Origin: Metabacillus litoralis
Lineage (GTDB): Bacteria; Bacillota; Bacilli; Bacillales; Bacillaceae
NCBI RefSeq assembly: GCF_003667825.1
Contig: NZ_CP033043.1
Location: forward strand, 3,970,001 to 4,034,000
Direction: 5' to 3'
DNA: 64,000 bases
Shown: piece by piece, positions 13,946-17,854 of the stretch
Layout of the letters: the number at the start of each line of letters is the position of its first letter
How positions within the stretch are numbered: the stretch's first letter is position 1
Made by a program: the position numbers and the translations under genes
Notes under the pieces: model-generated
Databases searched by the model: none
What the model was told of the DNA's origin: nothing
Seen by the model: the letters and a program-made list of their open reading frames with translations, nothing else

Positions 13946-14200
13946 TCATTCATCCAAATCAATTTGTATGGTTCCTTTTTGGTGCATGATTGTCATTTTT
14001 GTGCCTGGGGCCATGATGTTTTCTAGGATGTCTTTTGCTGCTTGTAAGGCAAATTCGATTCGTTCTAGCTTTTCTGTTTCTTCCTCACGTTGGTTGAGTG
14101 GAATGTCTGACATTTTCTGTGTATAGTTCAATGATGTTTGATGAAACTCAGCTAGTTTTTCATAAACTTCATCATATAGTTCCTCGATTTCTTTTTTCAT
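13946..14200 (-). CDS. Hypothetical coiled-coil protein, 84 aa
   Basis: Family not recognised. The product is strongly charged and predicted helical (MKKEIEELYDEVYEKLAEFH, then two further helices), with a short C-terminal strand GTIQIDLDE. No Cys, signal or membrane segment. The ATG at 14198-14200 follows AGAGG; upstream in-frame sequence lacks a ribosome site. It lies 68 nt after the flavoprotein gene on the same strand and may be co-transcribed with it. Confidence 0.65.
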   Translation of the reverse strand: MKKEIEELYDEVYEKLAEFHQTSLNYTQKMSDIPLNQREEETEKLERIEFALQAAKDILENIMAPGTKMTIMHQKGTIQIDLDE

Positions 14201-14268
14201 GTCCAGCCTCTCCCTTTTTCTTGCTCCTTCTTCTATCATACAAAACTGAAGCTTAAGTAAACAGAGAT

Positions 14269-15183
14269 TTACGATTGATTTTTTAATAATCGCTTATGAA
14301 TCCAAATGGCAGCCTGACAGCCGTCTGCCATTGCAATTGTGACTTGCTCAGAATGGGCGACAACATCTCCTGCTGCCCATACGTTTGTGACATTTGTTTC
14401 CTTTGTTCGCGGATCTACTAAAACATGTTTATTTTCCAGCCTTTCCACCCCAAGCTGCGCGGCTAGGTCTGAATGAACTGAATTTCCACCGAAGCCTATA
14501 AACCCTTTATCTCCCGCTACTGTTTGTCCATTTTTCAGCCTTACCCCTTTAAATTTGGATTCATTTTCAGTAATAATTTCTTCAATCTGTTCGTCTATCA
14601 CACGAATGTTTTTTTGCTTAAGCTGATCGAGCAAGGCTGCTTCAAGTTGTTCCTCGTCATGATTGATAAATGTTATTTTGTCTGTCCAATACGTTAGTGT
14701 TAAAGCTAAATTCCCTCCTGTTTTTCCTGAACCTAATAACAAGACATGCTGATCTCGCACTTCATATCCATCACAATCTGGACAAACATAGATTGAGATT
14801 CCTAAGCATGGCTCGATGTTTTTAATACTTGGAATTCGATCCTTAATTCCTGTGGATAATAATAATGTTTTTGCTTCATACACTGTTCCATCCTCTGTGT
14901 GAAGGAGGATGTTTTCCCCGTTTTTCTCAGACTTATGAACAAAGCCTTTTTTAAATTCTACTCCATAGCTTTCTGCCTGCTTTCTGCCCAAGTTCCTTAG
15001 CGTTTCCCCACTTACCCCTTCAGGCCAGCCTAGTATATTATGATAAGCACGGCACAAGTTAGACCGGCCATCTTGATTATCTAAAACAAGCACATTGTGC
15101 ATATATCGTCCAAGTTGAAGAGCTGCTTGTAGCCCTGCAATTCCACCTCCAACAATTATGCATTCATATGAGTTTGCTTTCAT
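14269..15183 (-). CDS. FAD/NAD(P)-binding oxidoreductase, thioredoxin reductase-like
   Basis: A two-dinucleotide-fold flavoprotein of 304 residues. The FAD-binding motif GGGIAGLQAA is near residue 12, CPDCDGYE near 136 sits where thioredoxin reductase has its CxxC, the NADPH fold GSGKTGGN is near 153, and the C-terminal FAD motif WAAGDVV near 271. The intact CPDC pair suggests disulfide or flavin-coupled redox chemistry. No thioredoxin-like partner is adjacent, so the substrate is unknown. The ATG at 15181-15183 is 9 bases from AAGGA. Its promoter must lie within or beside the DnaA-box cluster. Confidence 0.88.
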   Translation of the reverse strand: MKANSYECIIVGGGIAGLQAALQLGRYMHNVLVLDNQDGRSNLCRAYHNILGWPEGVSGETLRNLGRKQAESYGVEFKKGFVHKSEKNGENILLHTEDGTVYEAKTLLLSTGIKDRIPSIKNIEPCLGISIYVCPDCDGYEVRDQHVLLLGSGKTGGNLALTLTYWTDKITFINHDEEQLEAALLDQLKQKNIRVIDEQIEEIITENESKFKGVRLKNGQTVAGDKGFIGFGGNSVHSDLAAQLGVERLENKHVLVDPRTKETNVTNVWAAGDVVAHSEQVTIAMADGCQAAIWIHKRLLKNQS

Positions 15184-15238
15184 ATCCACACGTCCTTTTT
15201 CATTTCGTACACATTAGCGTTTGTTAAAAGGAAAAAGT

Positions 15239-15521
15239 TCATTCACATTTTATCCACACAGAAAAAGGAACTGAACTTTTGTCCAGTTCCCACAGGTTTT
15301 TCCTCAAATTGTGGATAAAAAGAATTAAACGACACGTATTTACAATATCGACACAAATATTCGTCAAAAATTTAGATATTAACAAGTTATTAAACTGTTA
15401 ACAACAACTTATCCACAAAAGTTATACACATATCCACATTTCCTATCCACATTTTGTGTGGGTACATGCGTTCGCCACAATATATATAGGACTTTTTTCC
15501 ATTGTTTAAAAGTTATTCACA
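15239..15521. promoter_or_regulatory. Cluster of eight DnaA boxes
   Basis: Boxes read directly against TTATNCACA are listed here. Perfect TTATCCACA lies at 15250-15258 (+), 15310-15318 (-) and 15409-15417 (+). TTATACACA lies at 15422-15430 (+) and TTATTCACA at 15513-15521 (+). One-mismatch boxes are at 15239-15247, 15430-15438 and 15443-15451 (+). An AT-rich block (about 15340-15405) separates the first three from the rest. No replication gene is adjacent. Comparable intergenic DnaA-box clusters near the origin restrain initiation in B. subtilis, from published work on that species. Confidence 0.8.
15262..15290 (-). terminator. Weak terminator downstream of the SDR gene
   Basis: Minus-strand stem GGAACTG/CAGTTCC followed by TTTTT, inside the DnaA-box region and just before the flavoprotein gene. 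Confidence 0.5.
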
Positions 15522-15547
15522 GGGCATTTTTAGGTCTTTTTGCTGAC

Positions 15548-16453
15548 TTATGATGTTCTAAAATCTCCTCCATTTACATGCAGTACTTGCCCTGTCACAT
15601 ACCTTGAATCATCAGAAGCAAGATAAACGTAAGTTGGAGCTAGCTCAAACGGTTGACCTGCCCGCTTCATTTCTGTGTCAGTTCCGAATGTTGCAACCTT
15701 TTCTGCCGAAAAGCTCGAAGGAATCAGTGGAGTCCAAATTGGTCCTGGCGCTACACCATTTACCCGTATTCCCTTATCCACAAGTGATAATGAAAGAGAT
15801 CGTGTAAATGTTGTAATGGCACCCTTAGTTGCTGAGTAATCGATTAGTGTTTTATGTCCTTGATAAGCTGTGATTGACGTCGTATTAATGATCGAGCTTC
15901 CATTGTTTAAGTATGGTAAGCTTGCTTTCACCATATAGAAGAAAGCAAAAATGTTCGTTCGGAACGTTGCTTCTAGCTGCTCGGCAGAAATATTTAAAAT
16001 GCTATCCTGAACAATTTGGATACCATGGTTATTCACTACAATGTCTAGTCTTCCAAATGTCTGGATCGTTTGCCTAACAACTTCATATGCTGTTCGTTCC
16101 TGACCTAAATCTCCTGCATAAAGCAGGCATCTCCCACCAAGTTGTTCAATTCTTTGTTTTGTTATTTGGGCATCACGATGTTCATTTAAATAAGGAATCA
16201 CAACAGCTGCCCCTTCTTTTACAAATGCATAGGCAACCGCTCTTCCTATACCACTATCCCCACCTGTAATAATGGCCACCTTGTTTTTTAACTTTCCGCT
16301 TCCTTTATATCCCTCCCATTCAGAGATCGGATTTGGATTCATTTCATATTCAAATCCAGGATGACGGTCTTGATGCTGTGGTGGAAAAGCAATTGGCTGT
16401 TCCTTCACCTTTTGCTTTTTTGAATAATATGGATAAACAGGATACGGTTTCAT
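15548..16453 (-). CDS. SDR family oxidoreductase, general-stress YhdF/YdaD type
   Basis: NAD(P)-dependent classical short-chain dehydrogenase of 301 residues; substrate unknown. A Pro/Tyr/Gln-rich leader of about 50 residues is typical of this subfamily. The cofactor motif TGGDSGIG is at 63-70, NNHG (variant of NNAG) at 141-144 and the catalytic Tyr206-x3-Lys210. The ATG at 16451-16453 follows GGGAGG by 9 bases; the preceding in-frame stretch is not family-like. I found no clear sigma-B promoter, although homologues in B. subtilis belong to that regulon. Confidence 0.9.
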   Translation of the reverse strand: MKPYPVYPYYSKKQKVKEQPIAFPPQHQDRHPGFEYEMNPNPISEWEGYKGSGKLKNKVAIITGGDSGIGRAVAYAFVKEGAAVVIPYLNEHRDAQITKQRIEQLGGRCLLYAGDLGQERTAYEVVRQTIQTFGRLDIVVNNHGIQIVQDSILNISAEQLEATFRTNIFAFFYMVKASLPYLNNGSSIINTTSITAYQGHKTLIDYSATKGAITTFTRSLSLSLVDKGIRVNGVAPGPIWTPLIPSSFSAEKVATFGTDTEMKRAGQPFELAPTYVYLASDDSRYVTGQVLHVNGGDFRTS

Positions 16454-16526
16454 GAGTTTAGCCCTCCCTGTAGTGATCTTCGCTACGATAAAGCCTATTC
16501 TTCTACAGCTTGGATAGATGACAAAA

Positions 16527-16551
16527 AAAGAACTTAGGAGTAATCCCAAGT
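16527..16551 (-). terminator. Terminator of the beta-propeller gene
   Basis: Minus-strand stem ACTTGGGA/TCCTAAGT (one G-T pair) followed by seven T residues, 8 nt after the stop. Confidence 0.75.
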
Positions 16552-16558
16552 CCTGATA

Positions 16559-17854
16559 TTATTTTTTTCTCATCTTACTCACAACATAAGAGAATAATAC
16601 GAGCACCAGTGAACATATAAACATAGCAACAGCCACCATCGCCAGCCAGATGCCATACCATGGATTTGTGATTGCCCCAATCGCAAAGCTTCCAATAAAA
16701 AAGAGTAGAGAAAGACCAAGACTAATATATGAAGGTTGAAAAACCTTACCTGATCTTATATGGGACAATAAAATCAACCCACCAAAGAAAAGAACATAAT
16801 AAATGGCCATTGCAACTTCATTTGCTAACAAGAAATACACTGTTTTCATCGCTAAATGGCTGTTGGCTGATGAAGGGAGATTTACATTCACTTCTTGTTC
16901 ATCTCCACCTTCAAATGAGACAGTCATAAGTCGATAGTTCTCTGGATCACTAGGCCAATTTGTATACTCCAGAAATGCCAACTTGTTTTCATGATGTAAA
17001 AAGACAGGTGATTGTATATTGTTGTCTAAATAGGTTAATCGTTTTGTTTCAGCTGTTTGTAGATTTTGAAGATATAGTTCATATTTAAATAAACTGCTAT
17101 TTAATGATGCTTTCGTTACCGCCGTGTATGCTAGAAATTTCTTATCCTTAGATAAAACAGAAGAATAGATATCTTTTTTAACAGAAACAACAGGTGATTC
17201 TGTTTTACCTTTTAGAGAAAAAACAGTAGGCTCTTCGTATGCTTGAAATAAGCTATAATACAGTTCTTCTCCATCCTCAGATATCGAAAGGTCATTCATT
17301 GTGAAGTGATCCTGATCTGTTAATTGTTCTAGATTTGTTCCATCACGATTGATTTTGTAAAGATCATACCCTTCCTTTGTTTCTCCTTCCATCTTATTAA
17401 TTTCAGATGAAAGCTTTGCAATAAAATACAAGATGTCACCATTAGGAGAAAAAACAGCATCTGTTACATGTAAAGAATCGTCCGTTACCCTTTTTTGATG
17501 ACTTCCATCCTTGTTCATCACCAATAAGCTTTGTGCACCATCTATTTCCTCAGAAAGAAATAATAGCTGTTCTCCATCTTGGGAAAACTTCGGGCTCCGA
17601 AATCTACCATTTTCTTTGCTACTAACCTTGGTAAGCTCCGATCCATCAAGATTTGCTGTATAAATTGCTTCATCTCCATCTACATAATATGAAAAAGCAA
17701 TGGTCTCGTCATCTGGTGATACGTCAATATCTTTGCCTAACCCGGTATAAAACTGATAAGGATCTTCTTCGTTTAAAAATTGAAACAAGATAGAGCCAAC
17801 TAAAAGAAGCAAACTTATGATAGTGAAAACGATCAGAATCCGTTTTTGTCTCAT
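16559..17854 (-). CDS. Membrane-anchored TolB-like beta-propeller protein
   Basis: The 431-residue product has an N-terminal signal-anchor helix (about 6-26). An extracytoplasmic domain of repeated SPDDETIAF, SQDGEQLLF, SPNGDILYF and SEDGEELYY motifs follows (WD40-like/TolB propeller blades, about 40-330). It ends with three membrane helices (about 340-430). Function unknown. It follows two OppC-like permease genes by 69 nt on the same strand and is likely the last gene of that operon, so it may act as an extracytoplasmic module of the transporter. The ATG at 17852-17854 is 9 bases from AAGGAG; one two codons earlier is too close. Confidence 0.75.
   Translation of the reverse strand: MRQKRILIVFTIISLLLLVGSILFQFLNEEDPYQFYTGLGKDIDVSPDDETIAFSYYVDGDEAIYTANLDGSELTKVSSKENGRFRSPKFSQDGEQLLFLSEEIDGAQSLLVMNKDGSHQKRVTDDSLHVTDAVFSPNGDILYFIAKLSSEINKMEGETKEGYDLYKINRDGTNLEQLTDQDHFTMNDLSISEDGEELYYSLFQAYEEPTVFSLKGKTESPVVSVKKDIYSSVLSKDKKFLAYTAVTKASLNSSLFKYELYLQNLQTAETKRLTYLDNNIQSPVFLHHENKLAFLEYTNWPSDPENYRLMTVSFEGGDEQEVNVNLPSSANSHLAMKTVYFLLANEVAMAIYYVLFFGGLILLSHIRSGKVFQPSYISLGLSLLFFIGSFAIGAITNPWYGIWLAMVAVAMFICSLVLVLFSYVVSKMRKK

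What the first reader, a model, noticed from the sequence alone, without database searches (positions are those of the whole stretch)
15239..15521. Cluster of eight DnaA boxes in a 283-bp intergenic stretch
Three perfect TTATCCACA, two TTATNCACA variants and three one-mismatch boxes lie in a stretch with an AT-rich core and no replication gene. Chance expectation for even one perfect box in 283 bp is very low. B. subtilis has origin-proximal DnaA-box clusters that titrate DnaA and restrain initiation, and gene order here is like that flank. The flavoprotein gene whose promoter must lie here may also be DnaA-regulated.
Basis: partly seen in the sequence, partly recalled or inferred. Interest (0 to 1): 0.78.

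Follow-up and report, generated by a model that had tools for sequence, protein, structure and literature searches.

The report
Duplicated DnaA-binding element near the origin
A 165-base stretch near the replication origin of a Metabacillus-like chromosome looks like a conserved landing pad for the replication starter protein DnaA that was copied long ago from beside the rlmH gene, still carries dead scraps of two genes, and probably helps to hold back extra rounds of replication.

Summary
It lies 178 kb left of dnaA, between galKET and qoxABCD, where B. subtilis has its ywcI/vpr DnaA-box cluster, a strong DnaA-binding region there (PMC4447404).

Its core (15366-15523) is found in 21 of 21 genomes of the genus, own included, and is constrained between boxes too: non-box identity 78% versus 39% at four-fold sites. 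A profile of it finds the B. subtilis ywcI/vpr cluster and a second element between yyzF and rlmH that occurs widely in the order. The window copy appears to descend from that element: it keeps non-coding remnants of the yyzF end and rlmH start. In this family the resident rlmH element has changed boxes 1 and 3, as if the ancestral array had been handed over.

Most likely a DnaA-binding control element that restrains initiation. The class is known; the shared descent, fixed geometry and handover were not found in print. Binding and replication effects were not tested. A DnaA-regulated flavoprotein is unsupported.

The parts
15366..15523 (+). conserved core of the DnaA-box element
   Evidence: BLAST match in 21 of 21 genomes of the genus, own included; 74-93% identity in the other 20; alignment A1, 86% mean column identity
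15409..15417 (+). DnaA box 1, TTATCCACA
   Evidence: 1.92 bits per column over 21 genomes
15422..15430 (+). DnaA box 2, TTATACACA (TTATCAACA in most other genomes of the genus), 13 bp after box 1
   Evidence: within 1 mismatch in 23 of 23 second-site rows, 16 of 16 family rlmH rows and 33 of 33 out-of-family rows
15430..15438 (+). DnaA box 3, ATATCCACA, 8 bp after box 2 (they share one base)
   Evidence: invariant in A1, 2.00 bits per column
15443..15451 (+). DnaA box 4, CTATCCACA, 13 bp after box 3
15457..15465 (-). weak inverted box-like site GTACCCACA inside the conserved block TTTTGTGTGGGTACA
   Evidence: two mismatches; block 15452-15466 has 1.84 bits per column
15471..15479 (+). weak box-like site TTCGCCACA, inside the yyzF remnant; conserved in this genus but box-like in only 3 of 23 second-site rows
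   Evidence: two mismatches; block 15470-15486 has 1.85 bits per column
15513..15521 (+). distal DnaA box TTATTCACA
15367..15384 (-). non-coding remnant of the rlmH start (best read of this copy is VNSLI, not a clear match; VNI*IF in L019 and L024)
   Evidence: alignment and translations; 1.90 bits per column
15467..15524 (-). non-coding remnant of the yyzF 3' end (KSPIYIVAN in this copy)
15310..15318 (-). inverted DnaA box 5' of the core, TTATCCACA on the minus strand
   Evidence: an inverted box stands at -54 (4 genomes) or -63 to -65 (14 genomes) of 21
15250..15258 (+). further perfect DnaA box, at the same place in only 2 of 21 genomes (own included)
15239..15247 (+).
   Evidence: sequence
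15266..15291 (-). terminator-like hairpin with T run, downstream of the SDR gene and upstream of the flavoprotein gene
   Evidence: 1 found, 0.4 +- 0.5 in shuffles

Best explanation
An origin-proximal DnaA-box cluster, the counterpart in this Metabacillus-like genome of the B. subtilis ywcI/vpr cluster. It arose as a duplicate of the DnaA-box element that spans the rlmH start and yyzF end, placed near qox in an ancestor of the family. Inferred mechanism: DnaA binds cooperatively to a fixed array (four direct boxes at start-to-start spacings 13, 8 and 13, a distal box, and in most genomes an inverted box 54-65 bp upstream). Lying 2-9% of the chromosome from dnaA in the family, the element is copied soon after initiation, which doubles a high-affinity DnaA sink and lowers free DnaA, so that oriC does not fire again at once. 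Supported here by sequence: similarity to the B. subtilis sites, conservation beyond the boxes, shared descent and its direction, position, and change of boxes 1 and 3 at the resident rlmH element. Taken from print: B. subtilis DnaA binding to both counterpart sites, and early initiation when six clusters are deleted. Inferred: DnaA binding and the replication role in this species.
For: Core in 21 of 21 genomes of the genus, own included. R1 profile in 80 of 80 family genomes, 69 of them with two or more places. B. subtilis (G056, 4,215,606 bp) gives two places, 58.0 and 52.6 bits, 227,335 bp apart; the published ywcI/vpr and yydA peaks are 227,338 bp apart (PMC4447404 Table 1), and the first lies upstream of an 806-aa subtilase-family gene. 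Those regions bind ATP-DnaA with apparent Kd 0.13 and 0.16 uM. Non-box identity of the genus consensus to 33 out-of-family copies 66.4% versus 48.9 +- 2.7% in 300 box-preserving shuffles, largest 57.0%. In-frame YyzF-tail remnants in most second-site copies and clear rlmH-start remnants in a few, with stops. Non-box core 0.779 identical versus 0.390 at four-fold sites, higher in 171 of 171 pairs kept (of 210). The 23 second-site rows form one side of a branch, 94/91. Box 3 within 2 mismatches: 23 of 23 second-site, 31 of 33 out-of-family, 0 of 16 resident rlmH rows of this family; box 1 within 1: 17 of 23, 30 of 33, 2 of 16. Element 108-380 kb upstream of dnaA in 18 of 18 genomes measured. Neighbouring genes differ between genera.
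Against: No binding or replication data for this species. Branch support 94/91 falls short of the tool's own mark. Under a model of out-of-family copies the second-site copy outscores the resident one in only 3 of 14 genomes, all three of this genus, though coding sequence helps the resident copies there. The resident rlmH cluster is not dead: it keeps 7 boxes within one mismatch in this genome, box 2 in 16 of 16 family rows, and its B. subtilis counterpart binds DnaA strongly. Box 4 is kept less well at the second site (12 of 23 within one mismatch) than in out-of-family copies (23 of 33), and the weak TTCGCCACA site is box-like in only 3 of 23 second-site rows. The gcp/ydiF cluster is also conserved in 21 of 21 genomes of the genus, so conservation between boxes does not by itself mark this element as special. 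The titration role in B. subtilis is known to me only through reviews and a citing paper; the primary paper is not held. [quoted passage not shown] subtilis.
Confidence: 0.75

Rival explanations
1. A local DnaA-controlled promoter region: DnaA represses or activates the flavoprotein or SDR gene, as proposed for vpr and ywcI-sacT in B. subtilis.
For: B. subtilis DnaA appears to repress vpr and the ywcI-sacT operon (PMC4447404 introduction). Two box sites (15239, 15250) lie between the terminator-like hairpin and the flavoprotein start.
Against: Neighbouring genes change between genera (subtilase, SacT-like antiterminator, chromate transporter, NfrA, a phosphomethylpyrimidine kinase, SDR or flavoprotein, qoxD) while the core stays. 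The core is separated from the flavoprotein gene by a terminator-like hairpin. The 15250 box is at that place in 2 of 21 genomes. Promoter-like hits do not exceed shuffles (2 found, 2.4 expected).
Confidence: 0.12
2. An active DnaA-remodelling element, working like E. coli datA or DARS: the fixed box geometry builds a complex that changes the nucleotide state or oligomer state of DnaA, beyond mere titration.
For: Invariant spacing within the genus and strong constraint between boxes; inverted box at two main spacings 9-11 bp apart, about one helical turn; different evolution at the resident element. A 2026 review states that whether B. subtilis has regulators of DnaA ADP/ATP interconversion is unknown (PMC13220808).
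Against: No biochemical evidence. The same review says datA and DARS loci and IHF homologues are absent in B. subtilis; a citing paper says the B. subtilis cluster has only been shown to titrate (PMC5010248). Constraint between boxes could also serve cooperative binding alone.
Confidence: 0.2
3. Convergence: independent clusters of boxes that look alike because DnaA favours certain spacings, with no common descent between the rlmH and second-site copies.
For: Boxes themselves account for much of the similarity; a 165-bp tree has many weak forks.
Against: Non-box identity far above box-preserving shuffles; YyzF-tail codons in non-coding second-site copies; in the own genome the other clusters score at most 12.9 bits with R1, against 30.3 for the rlmH one and 140.6 for this one (R1 was built from this element).
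Confidence: 0.04
4. A cryptic or secondary replication origin.
For: DnaA boxes beside an AT-rich stretch (24% G+C in 15319-15408).
Against: The only full-length dnaA hit, with its own box clusters on either side, lies 178 kb away. A counterpart exists in B. subtilis, where it is not known as an origin (recalled).
Confidence: 0.02

Closest known systems
B. subtilis ywcI/vpr DnaA-box cluster
   Same: Sequence-similar (58.0 bits with R1); same neighbourhood (nfrA, qoxDCBA, galT); left arm, 308 kb from dnaA there and 178 kb here; same orientation to dnaA; YyzF-tail remnant in both.
   Different: This copy scores closer to the out-of-family rlmH copies (103.6 against 64.9 bits) and has other neighbouring genes (flavoprotein, SDR) instead of vpr and ywcI.
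B. subtilis yydA (rlmH) DnaA-box cluster
   Same: Same architecture and, on the evidence here, the descendant of the parent of the second-site copy.
   Different: Overlaps coding sequence at both ends; in this family boxes 1 and 3 are changed.
E. coli datA, DARS1, DARS2
   Same: Non-coding DnaA-box elements outside oriC with conserved position, acting on DnaA availability or state (PMC5010248, PMC13220808, passages).
   Different: datA uses IHF and acts on nucleotide state; no such activity is known to me for Bacillus clusters, and no shared sequence was tested here.

Membership tests
B. subtilis-type DnaA-box cluster (DBC) outside oriC | Several DnaA boxes within a few hundred bases, beyond chance | tested here: met
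   7 in 283 bp against 0.13 expected
B. subtilis-type DnaA-box cluster (DBC) outside oriC | oriC-proximal but separate from oriC | tested here: met
   178 kb upstream of dnaA
B. subtilis-type DnaA-box cluster (DBC) outside oriC | Bound by DnaA in vivo or in vitro | not testable with these tools
   only for the B. subtilis counterparts (PMC4447404)
B. subtilis-type DnaA-box cluster (DBC) outside oriC | Removal advances initiation | not testable with these tools
   reported for a six-cluster deletion of B. subtilis in reviews
ywcI/vpr cluster (orthologue of) | Same gene neighbourhood | tested here: met
   nfrA, qox and gal genes beside both
ywcI/vpr cluster (orthologue of) | Sequence similarity beyond other clusters of the genome | tested here: met
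ywcI/vpr cluster (orthologue of) | Flanked by vpr and ywcI | tested here: not met
   flavoprotein and SDR genes here; flanks vary by genus, so this is not used as defining
datA/DARS of E. coli | Changes the nucleotide state of DnaA | not testable with these tools
   biochemistry needed
datA/DARS of E. coli | IHF binding site | not tested
   IHF homologues are reported absent in B. subtilis (PMC13220808)

The most novel reading that the evidence does not exclude
The yyzF-rlmH element and its duplicate near qox are one family of fixed-geometry DnaA control elements, widespread in Bacillales, that act on DnaA itself, as datA or DARS do in E. coli. In the Bacillus-Metabacillus family the ancestral array moved by duplication from about 40 kb to about 180 kb from dnaA, after which the old site was rebuilt with other boxes.
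Probability: 0.2. Interest if true: 0.85.

Novelty: new member of a known kind. Interest (0 to 1): 0.6.

Why it matters
Bacillus clusters are described mainly as counts of DnaA boxes that soak up DnaA. Here one ancestral geometry is matched in hundreds of genomes (362 of 397 in the order; I aligned 72 rows), with a duplication of known direction and a change of boxes at the parent site, so one can ask which letters matter. Smith and Grossman wrote that there were not enough regions to define what makes some sites prefer ATP-DnaA; the aligned families supply such regions. The element also survives when the neighbouring genes are swapped, which separates a chromosome role from a local gene-control role. 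If the geometry does more than titrate, it bears on the stated open question whether B. subtilis has any regulator of the DnaA nucleotide switch.

Tried and rejected
Rfam search of 14000-17000: one sub-threshold hit (17.8 bits against a gathering score of 86.7, E 0.59), taken as chance. Consensus RNA fold of A1: one small hairpin of 9 pairs, between box 4 and the block after it, with a both-sides change in 1 row at 1 pair; no RNA reading pursued. Short ORFs in the interval: none adopted; conserved segments read as remnants with stops in the yyzF and rlmH frames. DnaA regulation of the flavoprotein gene: rejected as above. A shared element in all clusters of the genome: rejected, since the other clusters fetched score at most 12.9 bits with R1. 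That only this cluster is conserved: rejected, as the gcp/ydiF cluster is conserved in 21 of 21 genomes of the genus too. My early idea that the second-site copy is everywhere closer to the ancestor than the resident one: rejected (3 of 14). That the resident rlmH element simply decayed: not borne out, since it keeps many boxes. A search with the 4708501 cluster found nothing but itself and one 32-bp piece inside it.

Full report
OBSERVATION. Seven lie within one mismatch of TTATCCACA in 15239-15521; the eighth (15239) has two mismatches. At the density of the rest of the window 0.13 would be expected, and no 283-bp window away from this locus holds more than two. The window is C1:3970001-4034000 of a 5,230,624-bp single contig, with dnaA at 4163861. 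The cluster is therefore 178 kb upstream of dnaA, 3.4% of the chromosome.

THE OTHER CLUSTERS OF THE GENOME. The 82 perfect boxes include several clusters. By family search of the neighbouring ORFs one lies at an L-threonylcarbamoyladenylate synthase gene (ywlC; 3888825-3889042), one between rlmH and a CxxH/CxxC-protein gene (yydA and yyzF; 4125942-4126224), one between tsaD (gcp) and an ABC-F gene (ydiF; 4401374-4401952) and one beside yqeG (2601249-2601347). The B. subtilis gene names, sda beside yqeG (46-aa ORF, no family hit) and trmE for the cluster at 4160757-4160814 (between ORFs of 465 and 210 aa) are recalled or by size and place. Boxes also cluster on both sides of dnaA (4163423-4163741, 4165209-4165292). 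The window cluster stands between ywlC and yydA. In the published B. subtilis list (PMC4447404 Table 1, passages read) that place is taken by ywcI/vpr, with 11 sites and an apparent ATP-DnaA Kd of 0.13 uM, the lowest of the rows that I saw. The neighbourhood agrees: qoxABCD by family search on one side and galKET on the other, and nfrA, qoxDCBA and galT beside the B. subtilis site.

CONSERVATION. The 371-bp interval matched 21 of 21 genomes of the genus held, own included. Of the other 20, the two closest (G003, G016) align over most of it and the remaining 18 only over about 15366-15523 or part of it. In the 21-row alignment the stretch from box 1 to box 4 carries no gap in any row, so the spacings 13, 8 and 13 are fixed there. 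Constraint is not confined to boxes. Mean identity is 0.905 in box columns, 0.779 in non-box columns and 0.390 at four-fold degenerate sites of the neighbouring SDR and flavoprotein genes, non-box exceeding four-fold in 171 of 171 pairs (171 of 210 pairs kept, those with fewer than 60 four-fold sites dropped; 16 of 21 loci gave SDR and 19 flavoprotein sequence). An inverted box stands upstream at -54 in 4 genomes, at -63 to -65 in 14 and at -172 in one; 2 of 21 have none within 180 bp. The two main spacings differ by 9-11 bp, about one helical turn (inference).

A SECOND, OLDER PLACE. A sequence-only profile of the core (R1) matched 80 of 80 genomes of the family (69 with two or more places), 362 of 397 of the order and 128 of 398 of the class, own family included each time, with filters that lose weak matches and with rough E-values. 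I fetched only the best-scoring out-of-family places: 24 from the order search and 18 from the class search. Of these 42, 41 lie at rlmH and/or yyzF; the other (L113) lies beside qoxD. In the window's own genome the rlmH copy scores 30.3 bits and the other clusters at most 12.9. B. subtilis (G056, recognised by its 4,215,606-bp length, recalled) gives two places 227,335 bp apart; the published ywcI/vpr and yydA peaks are 227,338 bp apart. The first lies upstream of an 806-aa subtilase-family gene, which fits vpr. Thus both B. subtilis clusters belong to one sequence family.

DIRECTION OF COPYING. At rlmH the element runs from the rlmH start codon region (VNISII...) to the end of yyzF (CEYC..PAIYIVAN). 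Second-site copies are non-coding yet keep pieces: L019 reads TCE*WVKVRIYIVAN in the yyzF frame and VNI*IFT in the rlmH frame, and the window copy reads KSPIYIVAN. The YyzF tail shows in most of the 23 second-site rows, the rlmH start clearly in a few only. Dead pieces of genes point from rlmH to the second site, not the reverse. Non-box letters of the genus consensus match 33 out-of-family copies at 66.4% (33 of the 41 fetched; 8 close relatives of used rows left out); box-preserving shuffles, re-aligned to random sets of 12 of those 33, give 48.9 +- 2.7%, largest of 300 being 57.0%. In a tree of 72 rows that I chose from the loci fetched, the 23 second-site rows, L113 included, form one side of a branch with support 94/91, which does not reach the tool's starred level. 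The segment that was the rlmH ribosome-binding region now varies (0.73 bits per column), while the start-codon remnant (1.90), the boxes (1.86-2.00) and the yyzF remnant (1.85) do not.

HANDOVER. In the same 72 rows, box 1 is within one mismatch in 17 of 23 second-site rows and 30 of 33 out-of-family rows, but in only 2 of 16 resident rlmH rows of this family. Box 3 is within two mismatches in 23 of 23, 31 of 33 and 0 of 16. So where a second copy exists, the resident element has changed two boxes of the ancestral array. Results that limit this: box 2 is kept everywhere; box 4 is within one mismatch in 12 of 23, 23 of 33 and 6 of 16, so the second site has loosened it too; the weak TTCGCCACA site is box-like in 3 of 23, 14 of 33 and 0 of 16. 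The resident cluster of the own genome still holds 7 boxes within one mismatch. Scored whole against a model of the 33 out-of-family copies, the resident copy is the closer one in 11 of 14 genomes; only the three genomes of this genus tested show the reverse, 104-106 against 55-65 bits. Resident copies also carry coding constraint, which that model rewards.

POSITION AND NEIGHBOURS. In 18 genomes measured (the own and 17 of the 25, those whose contig length I had), the second-site copy is 108-380 kb (2.0-9.0%) upstream of dnaA and, in the 16 with both copies placed, the rlmH copy 32-88 kb. Some of these are large contigs of unfinished genomes. The genes beside the second-site copy differ: subtilase and SacT-like antiterminator in Bacillus (G056; subtilase also in G046), SacT-like antiterminator and chromate transporter (G065), NfrA with a phosphomethylpyrimidine kinase near by (G072), the kinase (G004), subtilase and permease (G079), flavoprotein and mostly SDR in this genus. 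An element that stays while its neighbours change is unlikely to serve those neighbours. At the window, a terminator-like hairpin at 15291-15266 also stands between core and flavoprotein gene.

MECHANISM. From print: B. subtilis DnaA binds both counterpart sites, and almost all regions cooperatively, and removing six clusters advances initiation (reviews PMC5295017 and PMC13220808, passages). A citing paper says that a cluster moved to the terminus works less well and that only titration has been shown (PMC5010248, passage). [quoted passage not shown] subtilis. The primary paper (Okumura 2012) is not held. My reading is a structured DnaA sink that doubles soon after initiation. Binding and effect in this species are inferred. 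Whether the fixed geometry does more than titrate, as datA or DARS do, is open.

LITERATURE. Searches for DnaA with yydA or vpr, DnaA box with rlmH (no paper), DnaA with yyzF (two papers), DnaA-box clusters with datA, DARS and Bacillus, and the wider ones listed no paper whose title or abstract start describes the shared descent or fixed geometry. The library holds open-licence papers only and I read passages, so an earlier report may exist.

Noticed in passing
G000:C1:4708501-4708649 (L032:5002-5150): Seven DnaA boxes within one mismatch (four perfect) in 149 bp, about 545 kb right of dnaA, beside an ORF with weak likeness to spore cortex-lytic and peptidoglycan hydrolases (below their cut-offs); not among the B. 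subtilis table rows that I saw in PMC4447404. Possibly a further cluster.
   Followed up: partly
G000:C1:4401634-4402067 (L031:5135-5568): The gcp/ydiF cluster also holds a conserved block of roughly 180 bp, matched at least in part in 21 of 21 genomes of the genus (own included), with no clear likeness to the window element (10.5 bits).
   Followed up: partly
L152 (G158:C1:3606800-3614400): In one genome of another family two matches lie about 4.3 kb apart, one by rlmH and one by yyzF, as if an insertion had split or duplicated the element.
   Followed up: no
L113/L148 (G110:C4:122735-122864): In one genome of another family (f32) a second copy sits directly beside qoxD, with an element by yyzF 56 kb away; the duplication may predate the split of the two families.
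   Followed up: partly
window 13318, 14851, 15774: Three further perfect TTATCCACA boxes lie inside the AraC-type regulator, flavoprotein and SDR genes, within 2 kb of the cluster.
   Followed up: no
G000:C1:4358204-4358330 (L030): Four boxes within one mismatch in 127 bp, two perfect, at the end of a 258-aa ORF without a family hit, about 194 kb right of dnaA.
   Followed up: no
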